Of a stretch of DNA of 64,000 bases, positions 3,238 through 64,000 are shown piece by piece (position 1 is the stretch's first letter; each line of letters begins with the position of its first letter). Location of the stretch: NCBI GenBank assembly GCA_037951105.1, contig JBAMJV010008519.1:1-64000 (forward strand), read 5' to 3'. The notes under the pieces are model-generated. The model was given only the letters and a program-made list of their open reading frames with translations, was not told the origin of the DNA and ran no database searches. Made by a program: the position numbers and the translations under genes. Origin of the DNA: Echinarachnius parma (taxonomy: Eukaryota; Echinodermata; Echinoidea; Clypeasteroida; Echinarachniidae).

Positions 3238-3627
3238 CATTGGCCTATACCCAGGATTGTTTAAAGGTACCTTTAAAGTTGAGAACCCCTCTCAGTGGGT
3301 GGGGGGGGGGGGTCCGTAATTTTATTCAGAAGCCGAGACCAAGTACCTTCAAAGTTGAAAACCCCTCTCAGTGAGGGGGGGGGGGGGGGGGGGTGTCCGT
3401 AAAAAAAAAAAATCCAAGCCGAAACCAAGTACATGTACTTTCAAAATTTTCGATTCCGAGACCAGAGATCTTTGACAAATTTAGTAGGTCGAGACCAGGT
3501 TTTAGTCGGTCAAGATCAGGATTCTGACGGTCGAGACCGCTCAAAAGTAGTCTCCAGACTAAAATTTGAAAGGGGGGGGGGGTTCAAACCCCCCAAAACA
3601 GCAATTTTTGGGTCAAAAGGGTACGCC

Positions 3628-3631
<4 letters not shown>
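3238..3631. mobile_element. Second hAT-like insertion in the AGT microsatellite
   Basis: Ends CATTGGCCTATACCC and GGGTACGCCTATG form an imperfect inverted repeat. Both flanks are AGTAGTAG (3230-3237 and 3632-3639). The interior holds two ~80-bp diverged units containing CCCCTCTCAGTG plus G runs. The microsatellite makes the duplication only weak evidence. Part of the interior (CCGAGACCAAGTAC and following) reappears at 5521-5575. Confidence 0.5.
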
Positions 3632-3666
<35 letters not shown>

Positions 3667-3690
3667 AAGTAGAAGTAGAAGTAGAAGTAG

Positions 3691-3741
<51 letters not shown>

Positions 3742-3815
3742 AAGTAGAAGTAGAAGTAGAAGTAGTAGTAGTAGTAGTAGAAGTAGTAGTAGTAGCAGTA
3801 GTAGTAGTATAGTAT
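3632..3815. repeat. (AGT)n microsatellite, right part
   Basis: AGT triplets with AGA-AGT blocks. It is the continuation of 994-1223 beyond two inserted elements and ends about 50 bp from the donor of the gene A death-domain exon. Confidence 0.95.
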
Positions 3816-3863
3816 TAGTATAGAAGGAGTAGGCTACCCAAGAAATAAGCAAAATTGGCTTAC

Positions 3864-4209
3864 CGCGTTGATCGACCATCTCTGCAATTGCAACTAAACC
3901 GACCTCAGTGAGCGCTGCTTCCAGTTTCTCTTTTTGCTCCTTCTTCGACGTCTCTTTCTTCCACGCCAAGAGGAGCTGCCTAGTCCCTTTCGAAGTTACT
4001 GCGCCTCCATCCCGGTTCGTGGCCTGAAACCCTTTGGCTCTCTGCATTTTCATGCCCAGCTTGAGCGCAAGATCCAGTAGCTTATCGTCGTCTCCGATTT
4101 CGTCGGCGATCTCCAACAGCTTGGCATCGCTTATACCTTTCATTGTCAGCTTGTAAAGGATGTTTATCAGTATATTGGTATCAGCGTCCGAAACGTCGTC
4201 GATAACCCC
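3864..4209 (-). CDS. Gene A, death-domain exon
   Basis: Seen: on the minus strand an acceptor (CTTATACAG) is followed by GVIDDVSDADTNILINIL, then GISDAKLLEIADEIGDDDK, LALKLGMKMQ, QLLLAWKKE and LEAALTEVGLVAIAEMV, and ends at a consensus donor (GTAAG, 3859-3863) in phase 1. Known of the family: death domains are six-helix bundles of about 85 residues with this pattern (Leu-rich helix 1, LG-x-x-W/L, the LLxxW of helix 5, a terminal L-x-x-IAE). They act in apoptosis or innate-immune adaptor complexes. The true start codon is not visible. Either a further 5' exon exists or translation begins at an internal Met (MKGISDAK). The frame also stays open through the acceptor to an ATG at 4251, so an unspliced start is possible. 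Joined to the lysine-rich exon at 1-382. Gene B at 28.9 kb is the divergent paralogue. Confidence 0.75.
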
Positions 4210-5371
4210 CTGTATAAGATTTTTTAAAACACAAAGTTGCACGGATGCCAAAATATATTTAGTTCACATATTTGTTGTAATAAATATAATTACAGACCAC
4301 TAAACATGTCATGTGGTACCCGCGGAACCGAGGGGGGGGGGGGGGGGGGGGGGGGGCTGGGGCCGCAGCTTGTCCCTAGCTTGTCGATATCTCCCCCAGC
4401 GCTAGCGGCGCTGACATGTCTGAACGGGCGGTGGATTTATGAATTTCACAGGCGAATATTGGATTTCTTCCGATATTTCTGTATTTAACGATGCTTAGGT
4501 TCGGATTTTACCACACAAGCCCTATTTCAATACATATTCAACAATATTGATCAATATAGATGTATTCGGCTACTTTCCCGAAACTGGACTTGGGCTTTAA
4601 AACAAAAAAATACATAAGCATAAAATAACAATTATTATAACAATTAAAATGTGGTCAGCCCGTCACTTTCAAAACATTTCTGCGGCCCCTAGCTGCATTG
4701 ATAGAGAATTGATAGAGAATTGATAGAGAATTGATAGAGAATCATGTTTTATGAAATTGTGTGATCCCCAACAATTAATTTTATTGATCGACGAATGCAT
4801 AATGTCACTTACATTATATCATACAAATGAAAAGTAAATTGTATGGTAATTATTGTGTTTATTCTTCGTCACAATGTTTGTTTTTCCGAAATCATGTCAC
4901 CGCATACTGCACAAATTTGGTAAAATGGGGGATTAGCCATATAATTATCAGCGTATTTCTCTTCCACAGTTTTGACATGAGGGGGAAACGATCATTACAA
5001 AAACATTCCGACAGGCTTATTATTATTAAAAAGTATTGTTAAAAGCTTGCAAAATCGTTTCAGAAACAGCTGACATATATCAATGGGTAATTTAGATTAG
5101 AATACATGTTGGGGAACAAACTTTTATTTTAAAAAAGAAAGAAAAAGAATATTTTCTTAAATTCTACACATAAATATACCAAAATGGTATTCAAATTGTT
5201 TGTGGTAATCTTTCTATTGAATACTTTATTATGTGAATCTATAACATTACATAGTCAGAGCCATATAGGCCTATACCAGTATACGGCTCTACAAGAGGTG
5301 TCTAGACTCTATAGAGTCGTGCGATTGTGTGTACTGCTGCTTTAAAAAACAAATTAAAACAGTCCTGTAAC
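4210..5371. other. Upstream of gene A exon; no gene recognised
   Basis: AT-rich unique-looking DNA with a run of about 26 G at 4331-4356 and a short tandem repeat of TTGATAGAGAA at about 4702-4742. A 5' exon or promoter of gene A may lie here, but none can be supported from sequence. Confidence 0.4.
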
Positions 5372-12079: not shown

Positions 12080-14225
12080 AATCAATTCAATTCAATTCAA
12101 TTCAAGGTATTTTATTCAACTATTTGTAGCCAAAGGCTAAATTACAAGTGAATTTACAAGGTAAAAACATCAAAATTACATACAGTGAAAGAAAATATAC
12201 ATATTATATCAATACAATTCAAAATATAAATAAGAATGCAAGTGGTTGGCATGTAAAAGTGGCAGAATGTAAATATTGCCTATCAAAATATGAGGAATAA
12301 CAACACCATTATCAATATGATATCAATCTAGTGTAAATTAACTATCAAATACGTAGTATCAACATTAAAGGCTTTTGCATAAAGTAGCATAACTTATTTA
12401 GTTAATGGGTAATCTTTACTTCAATAAAACTAATTGTAAGAGGGTTTAAAGCGTTATCAAGTTTCTATTAAAACTACAAATAATAATATACATGTACGAA
12501 CACTGCAAACAAAGATTAAATAACTAAACAAGTGGGAATTATAAGTAAATCAATAATAATTCACAATAAAGTAAATAGCTGCCTATCGACTATAAATGAT
12601 AGCATTAAGTTACAGGTTATAAATAAAGCTATATTGGGTTGTATTGAATGACTCAAATGTAAGTGTTTCAATAAAATAAAATAGTATTTAAAATGTCCAG
12701 GGTTTATATTACATGTTTATATTCTAAATACAAACTTAGTGAATTCATATTTATACAATCAAACAATATATTACAAGTTATAATATTAATGAAACTGTCT
12801 AAGTAAAGATGAATAAAAATAGCCATTTTAGAATGTATGCCTGATTAAAAAATTTGAAAGCTCTTATATAACTATCAAGAAGTAACTTGAATACAATTTA
12901 TATAATACATTGTGAGAATTGTTCATGGCACTAACTGGCAAGTCCATCTGAAGAGATTGCACAAAATGAGATTCATAAATATAATTATAAGGTTTTTAAA
13001 AAGTTTATAATAGTAAAAGTTCCAGTATCAATTTTGGTTTAAGAGTCTCACTAGGAATGGCAGAGCGCTCTTCCGATAGCGCTCTGTTCTACATTTCACA
13101 GTCCTGTATTGATCACTAAAACGCAGTGCACGGAGTTCAGACTGCTTTGGTGGCAACCATTGGGGGAAGTTTTTCTCAATTGATTTTGCAAACTTAACAC
13201 ACAATTGGACACGTCTTTCCGCCAAAGTGGTGAGTTTTGTGGTTAAGAGTGCGTTCTCGTAGGTTTGGTACTCTGGGCCGAGTATGATACGTAGCGCCCT
13301 TTTTTGTATACTCTCTATCTGTTCTGATTCCGCTAAGGTAAGGGAGGAGTGCCAAACCGGTGCACAGTATTCAGTGATGGGCCTAATGTAACATTGGAAC
13401 ACGGTCAGTAAGTCGTCTGCTAGAAGGCCGAACTTTTTAAGAGTTCTTAGCATGTACAACTTTCTACTTGACCTTGAGACAAGGTCGCATACATGATTGT
13501 TCCATTTGAGGTCATTCTGGATTGTAACGCCTAGTAATTTTACATGGTCGCACTCTGGGATCGGTTGATTAGCAATTATAACAGGTTCGGGGTCTGCGGG
13601 TTGTCTGCTAAATGATATTTTGAGGAATTGGCATTTAGCTGGATTTAACTTCATACGCGTGGATTCACACCACGCTTCTAACTCACGGACAGTTTGCGAT
13701 ATGTTACTCCCTGTGGTTGGCTTTCGGCTTTCAGCTATAGTCAGGTCATCAACATATTTCCACCTGGGTAAGGTTGATTCGTCTAGTGCATCGTTTACTA
13801 CTGCGAGGAAAAGGATTGGTCCCAGGCGTGTACCCTGTGGAACACCTGCATTTGTCACGACTGGTTCTGAAAGTTTGCCTCGGTATCGGACTTGCTGTGT
13901 TCGCTCTGATAGGAAGCTGGACACCCATGGTACCAGTTCTGGTCTGGCACCCAATGCGTAGATCTTCTGAATGGCAATGTTGTGGTCCACCAAGTCAAAT
14001 GCCTTGGAAAAATCTGTCATCACCACCGTTGATGTATATCCTGTTTTGTCAGCATGTGAATACAAGTATTCCAGTAGATCTACCAGGTAATGAGAGGTTG
14101 ACATACCCGGCCGATTTCCATACTGATGATGATCAATGTTTCCACTGATGTCAGCGAGCAGCATCTTGCAAACAAAGAGTTCAGCAAGTTTTGCGAAATG
14201 ACTGGTAAGTGCAATTGGTCTCAGA
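12080..14225 (-). mobile_element. 5'-truncated CR1/L2-type LINE
   Basis: Minus-strand element: reverse-transcriptase reading frame 14224-13028, a ~950-bp AT-rich 3' UTR, then a 3' end with GGCTACAAATAGTTGAATAA and a terminal (TTGAA)n microsatellite at 12080-12106. Known: CR1/L2 LINEs end in short tandem repeats and are usually 5'-truncated. Endonuclease and ORF1 are absent. The 5' break is near 14225, where recognisable RT sequence begins. A second, shorter 3' end of the same type is at 43094. Confidence 0.8.
13028..14224 (-). CDS. Non-LTR retrotransposon reverse transcriptase (5'-truncated)
   Basis: An open frame of about 400 residues with RT motifs in order: LRPIALTSHFAKLAE (fingers), TDFSKAFDLVDH (motif A, catalytic Asp), NAGVPQGTRLGPILFL (motif B), KYVDDLTI (motif C, catalytic Asp pair), LNPAKCQFLK (D) and KLLGVTI (E), then a thumb/connection region with YCAPVWHSSL and IQKRALRIILG, which is typical of CR1/jockey-like LINEs. 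The frame itself stays open to an ATG at 14314, but homology begins near LRPI, so the first ~30 codons are flanking DNA. It would copy RNA into DNA at a nicked target, but the element lacks the endonuclease and cannot act alone. The catalytic residues are intact and there is no internal stop, so the insertion looks young. It ends LVRLLNQN-stop, as expected before the 3' UTR. Confidence 0.85.
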   Translation of the reverse strand: MRPIALTSHFAKLAELFVCKMLLADISGNIDHHQYGNRPGMSTSHYLVDLLEYLYSHADKTGYTSTVVMTDFSKAFDLVDHNIAIQKIYALGARPELVPWVSSFLSERTQQVRYRGKLSEPVVTNAGVPQGTRLGPILFLAVVNDALDESTLPRWKYVDDLTIAESRKPTTGSNISQTVRELEAWCESTRMKLNPAKCQFLKISFSRQPADPEPVIIANQPIPECDHVKLLGVTIQNDLKWNNHVCDLVSRSSRKLYMLRTLKKFGLLADDLLTVFQCYIRPITEYCAPVWHSSLTLAESEQIESIQKRALRIILGPEYQTYENALLTTKLTTLAERRVQLCVKFAKSIEKNFPQWLPPKQSELRALRFSDQYRTVKCRTERYRKSALPFLVRLLNQN

Positions 14226-14319
14226 ATCATGGTTTTAATGTAATTTGTAATAATTGTCTGCATGTTACTCGTGAGATATGGTCGTTTAATTGTTTGCATT
14301 ACATCGAAATGCAAATTGT

Positions 14320-14400
14320 GCCAGTGTACGTTCTGTGCATTACATGACTTACCAAAATGTTATAATAATGTTTTTCAGAGCAAAACGTGTAGAATACTAG
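14320..14400 (+). repeat. Short dispersed repeat, copy 1
   Basis: CTGTGCATTACATGACTTA followed by TTTTTCAGAGCAAA recurs at 57480-57525. Not assigned to a family. Confidence 0.5.
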
Positions 14401-28577: not shown

Positions 28578-28913
28578 GGGGCAATCACTCTGTGGGAATT
28601 TTGATGTAATCAATGCTTGGTTACAACGTTTGCCAACGACTTGGACATAACCAACAAAGATTAAAAGGAACAGATTTCATCAACACTGTTTTTAACCAAC
28701 GCAAGATTAAAAGTAAATTTTAATAAACAATACATATAACCACCGTTGAGCGTTTTTTAATCAACAATTTTTAACCCGTAGTTTTGTAATACTTGTTTTA
28801 ACGGCTTTTTTGCATTCATCTAACGAAATAATATCTTGTTCATCTTTGAAACATTTTCTAGTGGTTATCGAGAACAAAATTGAACGACGTATCGGACGCA
28901 TAGCTGACCTACA

Positions 28914-29190
28914 ATGGCTGGGATAGGCGACGCAAAATTGTTGGAGATTGCCCAAGCTATCGGTGACAACGAAAAACTACCGAAGCTCGGTATCAAACTG
29001 GGCTTCAAAAAGCAACAAGTCAATCAATATCAGGCGACAAACCGGGAAGGGGGTAAAGTAGGGTCGAAAGGCACCGAGAACCTACTCCAGTCGTGGAAGG
29101 AAGGAGTCGAGAAGAAGGACCAAAGGCCAACACTTAAAGCAGCGCTCGTATCCGTCGGTTTGAAGGAAATTTCTGAAATGATCGGGAAAC
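28914..29190 (+). CDS. Gene B exon: death domain
   Basis: From ATG: MAGIGDAKLLEIAQAIGDNE, LGIKLGFKKQQVNQYQATNR, NLLQSWKEG, TLKAALVSVGLKEISEMIGK, then donor AAAC|GTGAGC in phase 1. This is a death domain clearly homologous to gene A (GISDAKLLEIADEIG; GFQATNRDGG; LLLAWKKE). Death domains mediate homotypic adaptor assembly in apoptosis and immunity. An acceptor (ATTTTCTAG) lies at 28853-28861, and the first 52 bases of the exon are alignable with gene A, but they carry small indels and an in-frame TGA at 28905-28907. Translation therefore can only start at the ATG at 28914 in this allele. Gene A reads about 20 residues further upstream without a stop. No 5' exon was found. Confidence 0.7.
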
Positions 29191-29255
29191 GTGAGCAAAT
29201 TTCGCATATTTTGTTGGACATTATTTTTTTTAATTGTCTCAAATTGTCAAAACGA

Positions 29256-29815
29256 TTAAAGGGATAGTTGAGTTCTGGTAAGGAGAGTACAGTTTTGGTG
29301 AAACTGAATTTTAGTAACCAAAACCTGCATCATTACATTACAAACTAATAGTTATAACTAGAATGGAACACAACATTACAAATGACGTAGTAAAGATCAT
29401 GTTATCATTCAAAAAGGGCCGTTAAAACGTAAGAGGGCGCTCTCTAAACACTCATCGGTTTCAACCATTTTGAATAAAATATTGTGCATGTGATGTTTTG
29501 TTGAAATAGTGATTAGATAGAGAAATAACCAACAACTATTTAAATACCTATTTTGTAACTTTTTGAAAAGAGGAAGCATTTTTTTGAATTTTTAACAGCT
29601 GGTTCAAAATTCTCTAATAAACCTGGGGCCCCAGCTTTATTACAAATTGTTATATTTATGGATATTTCAGTCGTCTCTGAACCGATTTTGATCAAACAAA
29701 GATGATTTTATTAGTTAAATATTATGCTCTTTCAAATTTTACACTCAGTTTTTCATTATCTCACAAAAAAAAGTAGTCTAGCGCCCTCTCTACCAAAACT
29801 CAACTATCTCTTTAA
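29256..29815 (-). mobile_element. Kolobok/T2-like MITE in gene B intron
   Basis: TTAAAGGGATAGTTGAGTT to CAACTATCTCTTTAA, TTAA at both ends, nearly identical to 10145-10694. It begins 66 bp after the donor of the death-domain exon. Confidence 0.9.
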
Positions 29816-44235: not shown

Positions 44236-44724
44236 CATTAAGAAAACATGTATAGTTAAAACACATTGGACTAATGAACGTCTCCAGGTCTAATACACAC
44301 AATATAGAACCGTCTAAATATTTGTATTGTGATCAAAAGTTTAAAATAGATTTCATTTTTAAAAATAATTAATAATTCAACTTTTAGCATATTTACGTGG
44401 GCGTAGCTGGGTCAGAATTTTGAAAAGTGCACTTTTCGGCCCAAACAGGGTAAAATTCAATTACTTTTTTTAATTCAAAGACATCTATCTAATGTGAAAG
44501 CATGCAATCCTAGCTTTCAGGCGTACCCCATTATACTGGGAAACTCCATGTGGTTCCGTTTTTATTCACTGTTGAAGTAACCCATCTCCAAAAGGCGAAC
44601 GTCCGTGAGGGATTATGTCGATATAGATTTAGTACCCATATATCTCATTTATGTTCTGTCATATACAGCTTATATTCGGACAATTTACTTCTAAGACTTG
44701 CTTCTCTCTGTATGCCAAACGTGG

Positions 44725-46548
44725 ATTGTGTTTTACTTGCCAAATAGAAAATACAAATGTCCAAACTTTGACTGAATAGTTAAATATTTTTTTAAATAAT
44801 GTGTTATTCGGAACCTTTGCTTTTCTTTAGCCGCATTTTTTAGGAACGCACCTATATACGCTCGTATTCCCGTATCACATATTTTAATGTGAATGTTAAC
44901 AGGATCAATTGCTGTCTAGATCATATATTGCATAATTACATGACCAAAGAAAGTATAGTTTTCATCACGGACGTTCCCATATCGCTCACGGACGTTCGCC
45001 AGAAACAAGAATGTTGGCAGAATGATCTGATCTCATCAAAAAGAGTTTCTATTCTTCGTATATGGCTTTAAAACAGGGTCATTATACAAACAAACTTGAA
45101 CATTGCAATAAATCTGTAAAAATGGTTTGGTTTTTACATGGACCTGGTCGTTATAATGAGTCATATTATTGGTTTAAATTGATTTAATGCTTATAGAACA
45201 TTATGATGATAATACTTTATCTATTCCTATTATATTTAAGCTAGATACCATGTATACATCCTAGTCAGATATAAAAGTAACATTTCCAAGTCGCCTGGTC
45301 CCTCTTTCTTATTATATTGTTTTTAATTACAATTTCACGGACGTTCGCACAAATTCACGGACGTTCTCTGCCTGAACAGTCTTACAGAAATTGATGACAA
45401 CATTTATTTGAATCTCCTCCAGACCAATATAAAACGTATACATTTATCAGTTGATATGATTTTAGCTATCTGAATTAATTATAATCACATGTCTGCTATA
45501 ACTATCACTCTTAGTGGACCTGTGGAAATCGTAACCCCTAATTTTGCCCCGGCTTTCCCCGGTTGGGCACTCTATAACAGAAATGCCAATATACTTCTGT
45601 AAATAAATGATTTTACAACATTTCTGCAATCCTAAATAACATGTATAATCAGAATAAAGGCCATTTTCCTGTTACCAGAATACGGTTTCTCACATGAGTC
45701 TTAATGTCACGGACGTTCGTATTAATTTCATGGACGTTCTCGAATTGCCTATAGTGGTACCCAAGTGTCCCATCTCGAGTCAATTAATTACAGACATATT
45801 TTATGTGTTTGTTATCGCATTTTATTATTATATTTAGAAAGAATATTTTAATAAAATGTAAAACCAATCGCATAATTATAATAATAAATGCAATCATTTT
45901 AAGGGCTAACTGTTTAAATCTAATTTGCAGAGATTATAAATTGTTTTATAACATTAATATGTCAAAGTTAAATCTTGCAAATAATCACGTTGATAGTTAA
46001 TTCCGATGTTTCCTGACCCACATCTCGTTTCCTAATTGTTAACCTCCAATCGGTTTCATTGTTTCAATTAGAATTAAGAACAATGTTGACCTTGAATGGT
46101 TTATTATAAATATTGCGCGAGCTGAAATTTAGTTGACTGTACAATATTATAATGATCCTAGCAAAAACAATATTTTTGATATATCAGGAAAGAAGAAAAC
46201 AGCCAATATTATAAGTAATGTTACGATGAAGTCATCAAAATAATGCATAAATCTTACAATCTCTATTAAATGGAAGAAGTCCAACAAATCTATTCCCTTG
46301 CTAGATATAATTTCAAACGATACCACATAATTTGGCACTATAAGAGATTGAAGCAGAGATGCTTTGAAAACCGATTCATACGTCATCATAATAATAAATG
46401 CGTTTGTCTCTATTAGATCTGCATACTTACGGGCTGGATATTGCGCCTTTGCACATCAGGCATAAATTATGATTATATTGTATTATCAGTATTATCATTA
46501 TTATTTTAATGATTTATTTTCTTTTTTTGAGGGGGGGGGGGGGGGGGG
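44725..46548 (+). repeat. 1,824-bp tandem duplication, copy 1
   Basis: Begins ATTGTGTTTTACTTGCC and ends in an 18-G run. Identical in every part compared to 46549-48372, including the homopolymer length. Confidence 0.95.
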
Positions 46549-48372
46549 ATTGTGTTTTACTTGCCAAATAGAAAATACAAATGTCCAAACTTTGACTGAA
46601 TAGTTAAATATTTTTTTAAATAATGTGTTATTCGGAACCTTTGCTTTTCTTTAGCCGCATTTTTTAGGAACGCACCTATATACGCTCGTATTCCCGTATC
46701 ACATATTTTAATGTGAATGTTAACAGGATCAATTGCTGTCTAGATCATATATTGCATAATTACATGACCAAAGAAAGTATAGTTTTCATCACGGACGTTC
46801 CCATATCGCTCACGGACGTTCGCCAGAAACAAGAATGTTGGCAGAATGATCTGATCTCATCAAAAAGAGTTTCTATTCTTCGTATATGGCTTTAAAACAG
46901 GGTCATTATACAAACAAACTTGAACATTGCAATAAATCTGTAAAAATGGTTTGGTTTTTACATGGACCTGGTCGTTATAATGAGTCATATTATTGGTTTA
47001 AATTGATTTAATGCTTATAGAACATTATGATGATAATACTTTATCTATTCCTATTATATTTAAGCTAGATACCATGTATACATCCTAGTCAGATATAAAA
47101 GTAACATTTCCAAGTCGCCTGGTCCCTCTTTCTTATTATATTGTTTTTAATTACAATTTCACGGACGTTCGCACAAATTCACGGACGTTCTCTGCCTGAA
47201 CAGTCTTACAGAAATTGATGACAACATTTATTTGAATCTCCTCCAGACCAATATAAAACGTATACATTTATCAGTTGATATGATTTTAGCTATCTGAATT
47301 AATTATAATCACATGTCTGCTATAACTATCACTCTTAGTGGACCTGTGGAAATCGTAACCCCTAATTTTGCCCCGGCTTTCCCCGGTTGGGCACTCTATA
47401 ACAGAAATGCCAATATACTTCTGTAAATAAATGATTTTACAACATTTCTGCAATCCTAAATAACATGTATAATCAGAATAAAGGCCATTTTCCTGTTACC
47501 AGAATACGGTTTCTCACATGAGTCTTAATGTCACGGACGTTCGTATTAATTTCATGGACGTTCTCGAATTGCCTATAGTGGTACCCAAGTGTCCCATCTC
47601 GAGTCAATTAATTACAGACATATTTTATGTGTTTGTTATCGCATTTTATTATTATATTTAGAAAGAATATTTTAATAAAATGTAAAACCAATCGCATAAT
47701 TATAATAATAAATGCAATCATTTTAAGGGCTAACTGTTTAAATCTAATTTGCAGAGATTATAAATTGTTTTATAACATTAATATGTCAAAGTTAAATCTT
47801 GCAAATAATCACGTTGATAGTTAATTCCGATGTTTCCTGACCCACATCTCGTTTCCTAATTGTTAACCTCCAATCGGTTTCATTGTTTCAATTAGAATTA
47901 AGAACAATGTTGACCTTGAATGGTTTATTATAAATATTGCGCGAGCTGAAATTTAGTTGACTGTACAATATTATAATGATCCTAGCAAAAACAATATTTT
48001 TGATATATCAGGAAAGAAGAAAACAGCCAATATTATAAGTAATGTTACGATGAAGTCATCAAAATAATGCATAAATCTTACAATCTCTATTAAATGGAAG
48101 AAGTCCAACAAATCTATTCCCTTGCTAGATATAATTTCAAACGATACCACATAATTTGGCACTATAAGAGATTGAAGCAGAGATGCTTTGAAAACCGATT
48201 CATACGTCATCATAATAATAAATGCGTTTGTCTCTATTAGATCTGCATACTTACGGGCTGGATATTGCGCCTTTGCACATCAGGCATAAATTATGATTAT
48301 ATTGTATTATCAGTATTATCATTATTATTTTAATGATTTATTTTCTTTTTTTGAGGGGGGGGGGGGGGGGGG
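46549..48372 (+). repeat. 1,824-bp tandem duplication, copy 2
   Basis: Starts directly after the G run of copy 1 and ends in its own 18-G run. The source junction (ACGTGG|ATTG) and G run share GG, so microhomology-mediated duplication or an assembly duplication could make it. Confidence 0.95.
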
Positions 48373-48533
48373 AAGAGGGATATGCATGTATTCGTTGCTT
48401 TTTCGTAATACAGTCAATATTGTAAAGCAAGTCGCTATCCTCTCGCAAGTATAGCTGACGATCTTTGTGATGTACCTCTTCTTTTCAAACAACTGGCGTC
48501 ATACAGCCATTTAGTTGGACTTAAATCCGACAG

Positions 48534-48677: not shown

Positions 48678-49984
48678 ACAGCTTTCTTTCGCTTGTAGGC
48701 CTGCGACTGTGCACAATCATAATCTTGGGGTTTGCCTTCCTTTAGTATAATGTCTACGCTGCACGGGTAGAAGTAAATATAATATCTAGGGGTATTACAA
48801 AACAGCTAAGCAAGGTGATCAAATGTAAAACGAACCTCCGTGATGGTGACTAAAAATCAACATATTCATGTGTGGTTGGCAGTGACCTGGGTCGAAAGGC
48901 ACACACAAGGGCCACCTGCTGTCAAAAAATTGTGCCAGTACTTGAACTTTTACTAAGATTTGTTGGGCCATAAATGACGAACGAACGTCCGTGAGCACAA
49001 CATTTCATACATTTGTTACAGTTAAATGATTTGCAGGAAATAAATTTATCTGGGATATGAGAGACATAACAATGTACTAACAACATCAAACGGTATCAAC
49101 TTGATGTGAGCGTTTAATATGGTAACATTATTAGAACAATTTTCATGATCGAACGTCCGTGAACGAACGTCCGAGCGAACGTCCGTATCATAAATAGTTG
49201 TCAAAAAAGTTTCGAAAATGCCTGATATAGCTTCTTGGTTAGCTGCTTGCCAAATAAAATTGCTGTACCGGTGTCTACGTGCAGATAAGCAGCCTCAGAT
49301 TCGTAATTGGGTCTACTCTTGCCGGACGTTCGTTTTCATCACGGACGTTCACGAAGATCACTTTTCGGCCTAAACCAAACATTGTATTTGATAGATAGAT
49401 TTCAAATAGGCAAACTACTGTGGCCCTACTGTGAGTTCATCAGACTGACCCCAGCAATTGATGACTAGGATGCACTTCGCTGAGCAGTGATGATACAAGA
49501 CGACAGAACGTCCGTGACGAAATCCAGTATAATTTCATACAAAAAAATGTTACTCCGCGAGCAGGAGTAGTTTGACAACTAAGTAGAATTCTGGTCGTAT
49601 AGATTTTAATGTATGTTCACGGACGTTCACTTATTATGACCTTTCCTATTGAAATTTACCCTGAGATCATATCAATGCCGCTCTACCGCCAATTCTTATA
49701 TGATACATGCTCAAGACATGTCAGATAGAAAATATAGACATTAATGCCTTTAAAGTTGATTAATATTTGTTTTAATCAGGTTAACAAATTCATAATTTTG
49801 TGGGGTGGAAAATGCCAATTTATGTTATTTTTTCACATTTGAGGTCCTGTGGCATGAAACCAAATGTTTGAAATGATATAAAACTATACATTTTCTGAAA
49901 GCCTTAATAATACTCTTTAATATGAGACCAAAAACAGGTATATCAGAGTTAATGGTGAGACACAGCAAATGATAGAAGCGCTCG

Positions 49985-52260
49985 TATGGCAAGCCGTTTT
50001 AACATTTATTCCTATTTCTTGATATCAAGAATTCAATTCTTGATATCAAGAATTCGACTTCTTGATATCAAAAATTCATTTCTTGATATCAAGAATTCAA
50101 TTCTTGATATCAAGAATTACCATTGCTTTACAACAGAAAATCATTTCTTGATATCAAGAATTCATTTCTTGATATCAAGAATTCATTTCTTGATATCAAG
50201 AAATAAATTCTTGATATCAAGAATTCATTTCTTGATATCAAGAATTCAATTCTTGATATCAAGAATTCATTTCTTGATATCAAGAATTCAATTCTTGATA
50301 TCAAAAAATAGAATTCATGATGTCAAGAATTCAATTCGTATTTCGAACGCAAGACTATTGCAAGAATTATTTTGATATCGAGCGCAAAAGTAATGCAAAC
50401 ATTCACAGTTGATTTCGAGCGCAAATGTAATGCAGAAATTCATTCTGATTTCGTGCTCAAAAGTTGCGCTCAAATTCATTGTGATTCGATTTCGAACGCA
50501 AAAGTTGTGCACGAATGAATCCTGCCTGAGTGGTGCGGTGTCGAAAGTCAATGTATCGCGAAAATTCAACTAATGCAAGAATTCATGTTGCCAGTTTGCA
50601 GTGCATTTACTGTCTCTGTGATATTCCTTGTAGAAAATTTTCATTTCATACTGTTTAAACATATGTTTTTTAGACCATTGATTAATGTTACATTGAAAAT
50701 GTTGGATGTGATTTTCCAGTTTAATTACTTGTTATAAAACACGCGTCTTTCAAAAACGTAAAACGGCAACATATCAAGAAATCATTTCGTGATATGTTGC
50801 CAATAGACAATGCGCAAACCTGTAGCAAAGATTACCCCGTGTGTAATAATATATTCACGTTTTTACTGCGCAATTTATTTCAAAATATTTTTGATCACGT
50901 CATTTAAAATAATACTGTCCGATCTGATCATTTTCAGCAAAAAGACATCTAAATTGACTTACAAAACACGCATTGTAAAAATGATAAATTGGCAACATAT
51001 CAAGAATTCATGCGGAACTAATGAATTTGTGATATGTTGCCAAATTGTGCATTTACAATGCGTATTTGTAAGTCTTTTTAGAAGTTATTTTGCTTTAAAA
51101 ATATCACATCTGACGTTACTATTTCAACTAAAATACAAGTATATTTTACAATTGATCATTCAGAAAAACACGTGGACATATTTATTGCACAAGGGACAAT
51201 CTTTACAACAGGTTTACGCAACGTTTATTGGCAACATATCACGAAATGATAAAAACGCACGTGGCCGATATTTGGGCTCAGACTGCAGCAGTTATGTTTA
51301 CTTAGGCTCTAGGGCGGTGTGTACACAGATCTATGGTGTGTGTTCACAAAGCACGCCCTGAATCTGGACTAGAGACTGCTATGCGGCAGTTTTGTGAATA
51401 GGCTCTAGCTATAGCGCGAGTCGTATAGGGCGGTGTGTACATGGTGTGTGTTCACAAAGCACTTCCTGAATCTGGACTAGACACCGCACCGCTCAGGAGG
51501 AAATCGTGCAATACTTTTGCGTTCGAAATCAGAATGTAATCCTGCTCAAATCTTGCGTTCGAAATCAGAATGTAATCCTGCTCAAATCTTGCGTTCGAAA
51601 TCAGAATGTAATCCTGCTCAAATCTTGCGTTCGAAATCAGAATGAATACCTGCACAACTCTCGCGTTAGAATTCAACTGTGAATTTATCCACTACTTTTG
51701 AGCTCGATATCCAAATGAATTCTTGATATCAAGAATTGATTTCTTGATATCAAGAAATCGAATTCTTGATATCAAAAAATAAATTCTTGATATCAAGAAA
51801 TTAATTCTTGATATCAAGAAATCGAATTCTTGATATCAAGAATTCGAATTCTTGATATCAAGAAATGAATTCTTGATATCAAGAAATCGAATTCTTGATA
51901 TCACGAAATGAATTCTTGATATCAAGAAATCGAATTCTTGATATCAAGAATTGAATTCTTGATATCAAGATTTACCATTGGTTAACAACAGAAAATTATT
52001 TCTTGATATCAAGAATTCGAATTCTTGATATCAAGAATTCGAATTCTTGATATCAAGAAATGAATTCTTGATATCAAGAATTGAATTCTTGATATCAAGA
52101 AATGAATTCTTGATATCAAGAATTGATTTCTTGATATCAAGAAATGAATTCTTGATATCAAGAAATGATTTTCTGTTGTAAAGCAATGGTAATTCTTGAT
52201 ATCAATAATTGAATTCTTGATATCAAGAAATAGGAATAAATGTTAAAACGGCTTGCCATA
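49985..52260. mobile_element. 2.28-kb foldback element made of TTGATATCAA palindromes
   Basis: Ends TATGGCAAGCCGTTTTAAC and GTTAAAACGGCTTGCCATA, flanked by CGCTCG on both sides (6 bp). About 13 TTGATATCAA palindromes in the left array (50024-50310) and about 22 in the right (51718-52225), spaced about 22 bp and alternating with GAATTC or GAAATC. Inside each array are mirrored blocks with CGAACGCAAAAG motifs (50335-50570; 51480-51680), and in the centre three GGCAACATATCA...TGATATGTTGCC hairpins (50768, 50991, 51229). No protein. Confidence 0.9.
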
Positions 52261-52318
52261 CGCTCGAGGTCTGGAAATGGCCAAAAGTGCATATTTCAAA
52301 AATCTGACCCAGCTGCCG

Positions 52319-60264: not shown

Positions 60265-61160
60265 CCCAGCTAGCCACCTGACGTCGTGCCATCGTTGGGC
60301 CGATGTCATTTTCGTTGTAAGGGGACGTTGGGCCAACATGCGACATGCGACGTCACCGAGACGTTAAAATGTCCGCCAGCCCAACATCAGCTCGGCGTCT
60401 TTTTTTAATGCTGGCCCAACGTCATTTAGCGATTTCGGCCCAACATCAATTATTAACAATGGCCCAATGTCAGTTCTAACGTAGGCCCAACATCGATTCC
60501 TGACGTTGAGAGAATATCAAGTTTTTACGTCGGCCCGACGTTAAAATGTCCGCCAGCCTAACATTGTCCCAACATCATGTTGTGATGTCGGGCAAATGTC
60601 AATTTCCGACAATGGCCCAACACCGAATCCTGACATAGGACAGATATCAAATTCTGATGTGGGCTCGACGTTAAAATGTCCGCCAGCCCAACATCGTCAC
60701 TACGTCATTTTGTGATATTGGCATAACGTCAATTTCCAACAATGGCCCAACATCAACTCATGACATTGGACCAACATAACATTATGATGTCGGCTCGAGG
60801 TTAAAATGTCCGCTAGCCCAACATTGTCACGACATCATTCTGTGATGTTGGTCCAACGTCAATTTCCGCCAATGGCCCAATATCAAATCCTGACGTTGGG
60901 CCAACATCAAATTCTGACGTTGGCCCGACATTAAAATGTCCGCCAGCCCGACATTAGCCCAACGTTATTTTTTATTGTTGGCCCAACATCAAATCTTGAC
61001 GTTGGCCCAACATCAAATCTTGACGTTTGCCCGACGTTTGAATGTCCGCTAACCGAACATTGGCCCAACGTCATTTGCTGATGCTGGACCAACATCAAAA
61101 TTTGACAATGGCCCAATGTCAAATGGCCAACGTAGGACCAACATCAAAAACGTAAAAAGA
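60265..61160 (+). repeat. 130-bp tandem array (array A) of CCCAACATC/GACGTTGG motifs
   Basis: TTAAAATGTCCGCCAGCC at 60364, 60541, 60671, 60801, 60931 and a variant near 61037: spacings 177, 130, 130, 130, 106. Each unit is filled with GGCCCAACATCA / TGACGTTGGCCC. Begins TACCCAGCTAGCCACCTGAC, probably a transposon end. Confidence 0.85.
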
Positions 61161-61701
61161 AATTAGAAAACATGCATAGATTCCACGTCCGATCCATGCA
61201 TTTTGTTTAACCTTTACACACTTTCATTCATAAATCATAATCATCATAATCATAATTCTATAAATATCCTACTCCTATACCTATTGCCTACTCCTAAACC
61301 TATCATCCTATCGTCCTACAAACATAGGTCGCAATCGGTATACTATATATACACCTCTTCTTAGCATGTATGTTTTGTAATAGTTAGTATTTGTAGAGCG
61401 TTGAATTTGAAATAATCCACCTTCAAATCATATTCATAACACTATTTAAGGTGTTATTTATATTCTTATATATCATTCTAAATTATATACAGCAGCAAGG
61501 ACATGACAAAAGTATATTTTTTAATATAAATAATTCCAAAAATCGAAAATTTTCATTTCACTTACGATCGCTTATAATCGATCATGAATTTCCCGATAGC
61601 AATACTTCTTTTTTTTTTACTTTTGAATTACTAATGTTTGTAATCGATTAAACGAAATTCAATTCAGTATAGATTTTCAAAGCAAGTTAACAAAAATATA
61701 A
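61161..61701. other. AT-rich spacer between two arrays
   Basis: No coding or repeat signal seen. Confidence 0.5.
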
Positions 61702-63040
61702 GTACCCAGCTAGCTAACTGACGTCGGACCGGTGTCGGCAGGTCTTCGGCAAGATCGCGGTCGGCAAACAGACGTCGCGCCAACATTACGCCAACGTCGA
61801 AATTAAGTTGGAGGTTTTGGAAATGAAATAAGTCGGAAAATGGTTGTAGTTGAATATCGTGCCGATGTCATTAAGTTGACGAAAAAAATATGTCTCAAAT
61901 AAAACGTCGCACTAAAATCGCACCAATGCCGAAACTGGTACCAATTTAAGAGCTTGATAGAGGGTTGTAATATTAATGTTGGGCCGATGTCAATAAACCA
62001 ACATGAATATGACATCTCAAATATGACGTTGGGCCAATGTTGTACCGATGTCGGAATATATCATTTTAAGAGGTCGGTAAATGGTTGAATGTGGAATTGA
62101 TGTCGGACGGATGTTATTAATTGGACATCAATATGACATCACAAATATGACGTCAAGCCGATATCGCGCCGATGTCAGAATTGGCAGCAATGACACGAGT
62201 CGGCAAATAGTCATGAAATCGATGTTCAGCCGATGTCAATATTCTGACATGAATATGTCATCTCCAATATGACGTCGGGATAATTTCGCGCCGATGTTGG
62301 AACTGGTAGCAATTAAAGAGGTCGGTAAATGGTTGTAACATTGATGTCGGACCAATGAGTTTTATTGGACATCCATATGACATCTCAATTATGACGCCAA
62401 AGCGATATCCTGCCGATGTCATAAATGGCACCAATGAAACTAATCATTAAATAGTCATTAAATGGATGTTGTGCCGTTGTCAATAATTCGACATGAATAT
62501 GACATCTCAAATATAAAATCGGCCTTCTATCGCCCCGATGTTGGAACTGGTAGTAATTTAAGAGGTCGGTAAAATGCTGTGAAATTGATGTCGGGTCACA
62601 GTTATTAATTAGACATAAATATGACATCCAAAATATGACTTTGGGCCTATACCGCACAGATGTCGGAACTTTACGAAATTTTAAAGGTGGGTAAAAGGTT
62701 GTGAAATAGATGTCGGGCGGATGTCATTACTCCTACATAAATATGACATCTCTACTATGACGTCAGTCCGATATTGTGATGATGTTGTATCTGGTAGCAA
62801 TTTAAGAGGTCGGTACATGGTTGTGAAATTGATGTCTGGCCAATGATATTAATTGGACCTCAATATGACATCTCTATATGATGACGCCAAAGCGATATCC
62901 TGCCGATGTCAGAACTGACAGCAATTAAACAAGTCGGCAAATGGTCATTAAACTGATGTTGTGCCGATGTCATTAATCCGACATGAATAAGAGATCTCAA
63001 ATATGACGTTGGGTCAATGTTGTACCGATGTCGGAACTGG
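61702..63040 (+). repeat. ~122-bp array B, ~245-bp dimer periodicity
   Basis: Starts GTACCCAGCTAGCTAACTGA, the same boundary as array A. AAGAGGTCGGTAAATGG-type blocks at about 62068, 62315, 62560 and 62803 (243-247 bp apart) alternate with AGTCGGCAAATGGTCATT-type blocks. Confidence 0.85.
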
Positions 63041-63650
63041 CGACCATTTGCCGGCTTGTTACATTGCTGCCAGTTCTGACATCGGCAGGATATCGCTATG
63101 GCGTCATCATTGAGATGTCATATTCATGTCTAATCATTGACTTCGGCACCATCAATTAAATGACCATTTGCCGAGTTGTTTCATTGCTGCAAGTTCTTAC
63201 ATCAGCCTGACATATTTATCACATTCATGTCTAATTAATAACATCGGACCGATATCAATTTTACTACCATTTACCGACCTCCTTAATTGCTATCTTTTCC
63301 GACATCGGGGCGATATTAGCCCGACGTCATATTGGAGATGGCATATTCATGTCCGACTATTGACATCGGCGCAACATCACTTTTATGATCATTTGCCGAC
63401 TTGTTTCATTGCTGTCAGTTCTGACATCGGCAGGATATCGCATTGACGTCATCATTGAGATGTCATATTCATGTCGGATCATTGACATCGGCTCAACATC
63501 AACTTAATGACTATTAGCCGACTTGATTCACTGCTGCCCATTCTGACGTCGTAGGATTTCGGTTTGACGTAAAAATTGAGATGTCCTATTCTTGTCTCAT
63601 TACTAACATTGTCCCGACATTAATTTCACAACCATGACTGACCACTGACT
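63041..63650 (-). repeat. Array B, inverted arm
   Basis: From about 63041 the same units are read as reverse complement (ACCATTTGCCGACTTGTTTC, GACATCGGCAGGATATCG). Confidence 0.85.
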
Positions 63651-64000
63651 GAATAATTGATGTTGGGTCGAAATCGCAAAATGACGTTTGGCCAGCATTA
63701 AAAACACAAAAACGCCGCGCTGATGTTGGGCTGGCGGACATTTTTACGTCGTGGCGACGTCGGATTTTCAATGTAGGCCCAACGTCTTCGGGCGAACGTC
63801 AAGATTTGATGTTGGGCCAACAATAAAAAATAACGTTGGGCTAATGTCGGGCTGTCGGACATTGTAATGTCGGGCCAACGTCAGAATTTGATGTTGGCCC
63901 AACGTCAGGATTTGATATTGGGCCATTGGCGGAAATTGACATTGGGCCAACATCACAGAATGATGTTGTGACAATGTTGGGCTAGTGGACATTTTAACCT
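63651..64000 (-). repeat. Array A, inverted arm (runs off the window)
   Basis: GGGCTGGCGGACATTTTTAC, GGGCTGTCGGACATTGTAA and GGGCTAGTGGACATTTTAA are the reverse complement of the array A unit start. Confidence 0.85.

What the first reader, a model, noticed from the sequence alone, without database searches (positions are those of the whole stretch)
49985..52260. Foldback element built of phased TTGATATCAA palindromes
Seen: about 35 copies of a perfect 10-bp palindrome in two arrays, about 22 bp apart (close to two helical turns), alternating with GAATTC-type hexamers. The arrays are bounded by 19-bp inverted ends and a 6-bp CGCTCG duplication. Mirrored inner blocks and three GGCAACATATCA hairpins make it a palindrome of palindromes. 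Inference: the array may be a multimer binding platform for its transposase or for a host palindrome-binding factor placed on one face of the helix. I recognise no superfamily with these ends and a 6-bp duplication.
Basis: partly seen in the sequence, partly recalled or inferred. Interest (0 to 1): 0.75.

Follow-up and report, generated by a model that had tools for sequence, protein, structure and literature searches.

The report
Foldback transposon that targets CpG hexamers
This is one copy of a recently active jumping DNA in an unnamed eukaryote: it appears to make no protein, carries dozens of evenly spaced copies of one mirror-symmetric DNA word near its ends, and lands mostly in sites of the form CG-any-any-CG; its ends fit a known but little-studied transposon group (IS3EU).

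Summary
Window 49985-52260 is a complete 2,276-bp foldback element with 34 perfect TTGATATCAA sites in two arrays (spacing 21-22 bp, 43-44 where a site is skipped). It ends TATGG...CCATA inside a 6-bp duplication, CGCTCG. The genome has 1,799 copies of the 19-bp end with at most one mismatch, control 0. Of 52 two-ended copies scored, 46 have an exact 6-bp duplication; without one duplicate locus, 30 of 45 read CGNNCG and 45 of 45 have CG at an edge. The 36 full-type copies lie 0.04-2.2% from their consensus: recent movement, and not an assembly artefact.

'No superfamily with these ends' is wrong: IS3EU has TAYGG..CCRTA ends, TIRs over 30 bp and 6-bp duplications. The array unit is an 18-20-bp palindrome, AWTTCTTGATATCAAGAAWT. 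The seven short elements read (116-300 bp) keep one to five sites.

Best explanation: a non-autonomous, IS3EU-like transposon whose arrays are multiple subterminal transposase sites, as shown for Galileo. The transposase was not found and binding was not tested. Array design and CGNNCG target look new for this superfamily in limited searches.

The parts
49979..49984 (.). left target-site duplication CGCTCG
49985..50018 (+). left terminal inverted repeat, TATGGCAAGCCGTTTTAACATTTATTCCTATTTC, the 34 bp before the first palindrome
   Evidence: 34-bp offset at one end in 47 of 52 copies and at the other in 44 of 52
50019..50337 (.). left array: 13 perfect TTGATATCAA sites (first starts 50019, last 50295) plus a two-mismatch one at 50317
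50119..50141 (+). non-palindromic spacer ACCATTGCTTTACAACAGAAAAT in place of one unit of the left array
   Evidence: spacing 44
50324..50486 (.). left inner 37-bp repeats (TTTCGARCGCAAAAGT type), part of them mirrored at 51599-51716
50765..50801 (.). hairpin GGCAACATATCA...TGATATGTTGCC
50781..51250 (.). inner 470-bp palindrome, 75% self-complementary, with the second full hairpin 50991-51041 at its centre
51517..51675 (.). right inner 36-bp repeats, inverse of the left inner repeats in part
51713..52231 (.). right array: 21 perfect TTGATATCAA sites (starts 51723 to 52217) plus a one-mismatch site at 51895; spacers at 51974-51996 (same sense as the left one) and 52168-52190 (inverted)
52227..52260 (-). 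right terminal inverted repeat, ending CGGCTTGCCATA
52261..52266 (.). right target-site duplication CGCTCG

Best explanation
It is a young, non-autonomous cut-and-paste DNA transposon of foldback form, most likely mobilised in trans by an IS3EU/GingerRoot-type DDE transposase. SHOWN: shared ends TATGG..CCATA, 6-bp duplications, a CGNNCG-type target, many near-identical copies, no ORF over 184 aa in the element and no Pfam match for that ORF. INFERRED: the transposase, as dimers or higher multimers, binds the AWTTCTTGATATCAAGAAWT palindromes (the first TTGATATCAA starts after 34 bp at each end), so that each arm carries a row of subterminal sites that raises the chance of capturing transposase and pairing the two ends. 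The complex then makes cuts staggered by 6 bp at a CGNNCG site. The arrays grew by repeat slippage or unequal exchange. Elements of only 116-300 bp keep one to five perfect sites, so a long array is not needed for movement but some sites may be.
For: 1,799 end sequences in the genome, control 0. Exact 6-bp TSD in 46 of 52 two-ended copies; CGNNCG in 30 of 45 non-duplicate exact TSDs and a CG edge in 45 of 45, against 0.18% and 5.5% of window positions. Divergence 0.04-2.2% from consensus in 36 copies. IS3EU published features: TAYGG..CCRTA, TIR >30 bp, 6-bp TSD; TA..TA and usually 6 bp. End-to-first-perfect-palindrome distance is 34 bp at one end in 47 of 52 copies and at the other in 44 of 52. 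Unit core near-invariant, joining bases variable. Short elements L045, L046 and L068-L072 keep 1-5 perfect sites. ORFs. [quoted passage not shown]
Against: No transposase with these ends was found. PF24764 domains in this genome (34 matches) lie, in the four loci fetched, in stretches of 5.5-7 kb without these ends, and one of them recurs as three near-identical copies including its intron, not clearly a transposon; that PF24764 is the IS3EU transposase is recalled, not tested. NF033577 returned 69 scored matches, none over the curated cut-off; the one read has the zinc-binding H2C2 domain of retroelement-type integrases, which IS3EU lacks. No binding data. Unit conservation may reflect recent amplification rather than selection. 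The same end-plus-palindrome module also lies inside a second kind of inverted-repeat element without a CG duplication, so it is not exclusive to this family. Six of 52 copies lack an exact duplication, two of them wholly (L028, L071).
Confidence: 0.6

Rival explanations
1. Same transposon, but the palindromes are sites for a host palindrome-binding protein (chromatin or transcription factor) that aids or silences the element, not for the transposase.
For: The site is a clean palindrome, as for dimeric host factors; the module also occurs in another element type, which a host factor used by both would explain.
Against: The first site starts at a fixed 34 bp from the end in most of the 52 copies scored, as expected of a transposase site; all seven short elements of this type that were read keep at least one perfect site.
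Confidence: 0.2
2. No protein binds the palindromes. The arrays are a by-product of replication slippage and hairpin formation in a foldback, kept alike by recent origin and gene conversion.
For: Full-type copies are very young, so there was little time to diverge; the sequence is strongly self-complementary.
Against: Within one copy, units differ in their joining bases while the 16-bp core hardly varies (37 sites); skipped sites keep the 43-44-bp step.
Confidence: 0.18
3. It belongs to another superfamily with a 6-bp duplication, for example Dada or a Polinton-like integrase system.
For: Dada makes 6-7-bp TSDs and Polinton 6-bp TSDs.
Against: No terminal inverted repeats were found in Dada. 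Polinton ends were not compared here. TAYGG..CCRTA plus 6 bp is published for IS3EU.
Confidence: 0.12
4. Assembly artefact or ordinary satellite.
For: Tandem arrays are prone to misassembly; this assembly holds identical contig stretches (L014/L015).
Against: Defined ends with different TSDs at different loci and near-constant site number in 36 copies.
Confidence: 0.01

Closest known systems
IS3EU/GingerRoot superfamily (PMC10045372: passages and section 3.3; PMC12730594: passages)
   Same: TAYGG..CCRTA ends (rust-fungus group), TIR longer than 30 bp, 6-bp TSD
   Different: No transposase found here; no palindrome array and no CGNNCG target mentioned in the passages read. Styx, an element whose transposase is related to IS3EU, has 6-bp TSDs ATCGAG, CGTGAT, TGTGAT and CATAAG (PMC10853768 passages), so CGNNCG is not general.
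Oyster satellites assigned to DNA/IS3EU (PMC8268682, table passage)
   Same: Tandem repeats attributed to IS3EU elements: CgiSat35 (690 bp) and CgiSat47 (129 bp)
   Different: Repeat units much longer than 21-22 bp; palindromes and ends were not compared
Galileo (P superfamily, foldback-like, Drosophila; PMC3688188 passages)
   Same: Long, internally repetitive inverted ends; several transposase-binding sites shown in the repeats
   Different: Different superfamily; sites are THAP sites, three in the copy described, not a phased row of perfect palindromes
Tetris, suggested to be a Mutator-type foldback (PMC4079207 passages)
   Same: Foldback form with tandem repeats inside the inverted ends; autonomous partner not found for Tetris either
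   Different: 8-10-bp TSDs; the repeat unit (TIR-220; about 220 bp by its name) is not a short palindrome
Dada (PMC3706591 passages)
   Same: 6-7-bp TSD with GCG-containing targets
   Different: No terminal inverted repeats found; targets specific small RNA genes

Membership tests
IS3EU/GingerRoot | 6-bp target-site duplication | tested here: met
   46 of 52 two-ended copies exact
IS3EU/GingerRoot | TA..TA termini, in one published group TAYGG..CCRTA | tested here: met
   TATGG..CCATA; published motif
IS3EU/GingerRoot | TIR longer than 30 bp (published for the rust-fungus group) | tested here: met
   about 70 bp at 99%
IS3EU/GingerRoot | DDE transposase of the IS3EU lineage encoded by an autonomous member with the same ends | tested here: inconclusive
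   Not found; four PF24764 loci lack the ends, but most of the 1,799 end sites could not be read
Foldback (structural class) | Long inverted repeats with internal tandem repeats | tested here: met
Dada | No terminal inverted repeats; insertion at a fixed site of a small RNA gene | tested here: not met
   Long TIRs and many different sites; one insertion is in a tRNA-Phe-like sequence
Mutator-type foldback | 8-10-bp TSD (as in Tetris) | tested here: not met
   6-bp TSDs

The most novel reading that the evidence does not exclude
A transposon lineage whose integration complex reads a CGNNCG palindrome, so that it inserts almost only at CpG-edged hexamers, while its ends carry about 36 closely phased operator-like palindromes that load a filament-like row of transposase. 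The end-plus-palindrome module is portable: a second inverted-repeat element type with outer ends AAGGAGTGGTCACAC carries it inside, as if non-autonomous elements of different kinds exchange or exploit the same recognition module.
Probability: 0.2. Interest if true: 0.75.

Novelty: new variant of a known kind. Interest (0 to 1): 0.5.

Why it matters
IS3EU is a thinly studied eukaryotic superfamily related to bacterial IS3/IS481 elements. A young, abundant family with a sharp CpG-edged target and a natural dose series of site number (1 to 47 perfect sites in the 52 copies scored) makes two questions testable: whether multiplying subterminal sites raises transposition, and whether a transposase can choose CpG-edged targets, with a possible link to methylation. 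It would also show foldback form arising outside the Mutator and P superfamilies, if the IS3EU assignment holds.

Tried and rejected
Dada was rejected for lack of TIRs. PF24764 (rva_4), recalled as a possible IS3EU transposase family, gave 34 matches, 0 of 14 control genomes. Four loci were read (L062-L065): no TATGGCAAGCCGTTTTAAC with up to 3 errors; its first 12 bases with 2 errors occur singly, twice in L064 and once in L065. L062 (PF24764 confirmed) recurs as three copies, 99-100% identical over 3.1 kb including the intron, so it may be one locus assembled three times. NF033577 (IS481) gave 69 scored matches, none over cut-off, and rang in 9 of 14 control genomes; the one read, L066, has Integrase_H2C2 and rve domains. 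Longer elements between these ends did not carry a transposase: L042 (4.0 kb) contains a reverse-transcriptase-like ORF, judged by eye (its longest ORF gives only a sub-threshold RVT_1 match, E 0.15), and L047 (5.2 kb) has about 3 kb of other sequence inside the left array. L058 looked like an end next to an ORF, but only one end is present and the 107-aa ORF has no Pfam match. A pattern for variant inner sequence gave 37 sites, control 0; 6 were read: five short two-ended elements, one one-ended, no transposase. The exact 19-bp end has 0 matches in viral contigs and genome contigs. Rfam: no match in the window at gathering score. ARAGORN did not call the tRNA-Phe-like insertion site a gene. 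Paper searches, listings only: none of the 5 listed of 11,237 papers holds CGNNCG, so no paper held all three terms, but a paper with CGNNCG and one other term could be unlisted; others (IS3EU, foldback, palindrom, MITE; 10 of 773 listed; 35 papers with IS3EU) showed no title or abstract start on a palindrome-array foldback of IS3EU. Figures, supplements and Repbase entries were not available.

Rows dropped before the duplication count: 20 of 72 loci. They are 9 loci with the longer outer repeat (L041, L044, L054-L057, L059-L061; L041 and L054 are the same place), 4 one-ended or complex copies (L012, L038-L040; L039 lies within L047), 2 one-ended (L058, L067), and 5 that are not this element (L062-L066). 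L015 (identical to L014) was removed before the CGNNCG count. Samples were not random: L002-L040 are the best matches, L042-L053 were picked for paired ends among the first 100 places, L067-L072 for unusual inner sequence. Among the 13 end-to-palindrome offsets that are not 34 (5 + 8), 10 are in the seven short elements.

Full report
WHAT IS THERE. The feature at 49985-52260 is a complete element. It starts TATGGCAAGCCGTTTTAACATTTATTCCTATTTC and ends with the reverse complement, inside a direct CGCTCG duplication. It contains 34 perfect TTGATATCAA, 13 in the left array and 21 in the right, at spacings of 21 or 22 bp, or 43-44 where a site is replaced or worn. Inside lie partly mirrored 36-37-bp repeats and a 470-bp inner palindrome around the GGCAACATATCA motifs. 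Its longest ORF is 184 aa and has no Pfam match at E up to 1.

IS IT MORE THAN CHANCE, AND MOBILE? The 19-bp end occurs 908 + 891 times in the genome with at most one mismatch, against 0 for the backwards control. Of the 40 loci fetched as best matches (window copy included), 36 show both ends. These have 25-38 perfect sites, nearly constant spacings, and lie 0.04-2.2% from their majority consensus; two of the 36 (L014, L015) are identical stretches. Over all 72 loci, 52 two-ended copies could be scored: 46 have an exact 6-bp duplication, 6 do not (four of these look like mutated or imperfect duplications with one or two mismatches; L028 and L071 show none). Without one duplicate locus, 30 of 45 duplications are CGNNCG and 45 of 45 have CG at one or both edges; the window background is 0.18% and 5.5%. 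The bases outside the hexamer show no comparable preference in the 33 copies tabulated. Departures are partly TG or CA in place of CG: 36 of 45 have CG, TG or CA at both edges, as decay of methylated CpG would give, though imprecise choice is equally possible. One insertion (L014/L015) sits in a tRNA-Phe-like sequence; the joined flanks give an unbroken tRNA-like stretch with a single AGAGCG, though ARAGORN calls no gene there.

SMALLER AND LARGER RELATIVES. Short elements with the same ends were found: 143 and 118 bp (L045, L046) and 116-300 bp (L068-L072). All seven keep one to five perfect palindromes; four have exact CG-type duplications, two differ by one base, and one (L071) has none. 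The first perfect palindrome lies 34 bp from the end at one end in 47 of 52 copies and at the other in 44 of 52; 10 of the 13 exceptions are in these seven short elements, five of which were chosen for unusual inner sequence. The two longest pairs read (L042, L047) are full-type elements with insertions, one holding a reverse-transcriptase-like ORF. A second kind of element carries the same TATGGC-to-palindrome module but inside a longer inverted repeat (AAGGAGTGGTCACACTGAACACGA...GGTACAAATC|TATGG), with no CG duplication at TATGG. Seven of the eight unpaired ends fetched were of this kind, so a good part of the 1,799 ends may belong to it. Its own duplication could not be fixed.

WHAT IT IS. 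The ends and the duplication length match IS3EU: published families end TA..TA and usually make 6-bp duplications (PMC10045372, passages, section 3.3), and the rust-fungus group has TIRs over 30 bp, TAYGG..CCRTA ends and 6-bp duplications (PMC12730594, passages). I therefore file it as probably IS3EU/GingerRoot, non-autonomous, in foldback form.

HOW IT MOST LIKELY WORKS. [quoted passage not shown] The common 34-bp offset and the survival of sites in the short elements agree with this. The phase is good between neighbours but not rigid: coherence is best near 10.65-10.75 bp per turn and poor at 10.5 for the right array, so 'one face of the helix' holds only locally. A host factor, or no protein at all, remains possible.

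NOVELTY. The kind (a foldback DNA transposon) is known, and satellites assigned to IS3EU are reported in oyster with longer units (PMC8268682, table passage). A foldback of probable IS3EU type built of closely phased short palindromes, with a CGNNCG target, did not turn up in my limited paper searches, and Styx, whose transposase is related to IS3EU, shows duplications without that pattern (PMC10853768 passages). I rate it a new variant of a known kind.

Noticed in passing
L054-L057, L059-L061 (and L041, L044): A second inverted-repeat element type holds the same TATGGCAAG-plus-palindrome module inside longer outer ends AAGGAGTGGTCACACTGAACACGA (in variants); no CG duplication; its own duplication is unclear.
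   Followed up: partly
window 60300-64000: A different palindrome-rich inverted structure (motifs such as TTGGGCCAA and GACGTC; arms 60798-61008 and 63790-64000 are 97% complementary), reaching the window end; possibly another foldback element.
   Followed up: partly
window 44723-48373: A 1,827-bp direct tandem duplication, 100% identical: very recent, or an assembly artefact.
   Followed up: no
G000:C2312:37124-40801: Three variant ends with identical inner sequence spaced about 1.82 kb, suggesting a tandem array that contains an end.
   Followed up: no
L014, L015: Insertion inside a tRNA-Phe-like sequence (perhaps a pseudogene or SINE head); two contigs carry the identical 3,153 bases.
   Followed up: partly
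L062 (C5134), C5440, C3561: An intron-split gene with a PF24764 integrase-like domain occurs three times at 99-100% identity including the intron.
   Followed up: partly
window 13028-14359 (-): Reverse transcriptase ORF of 443 aa (RVT_1, E 1.2e-27), a non-LTR element by the look of it.
   Followed up: no
window 28908-29267 (+) and 3613-4263 (-): Two ORFs alike by eye; the first has a weak Death-domain match (E 0.0085, below the curated cut-off), the second none.
   Followed up: no
L003 and L034 flanks: The copy in L003 sits inside another inverted repeat (CCCCCATATATCGCGTAACCCGG type); L034 has similar sequence on one side.
   Followed up: no
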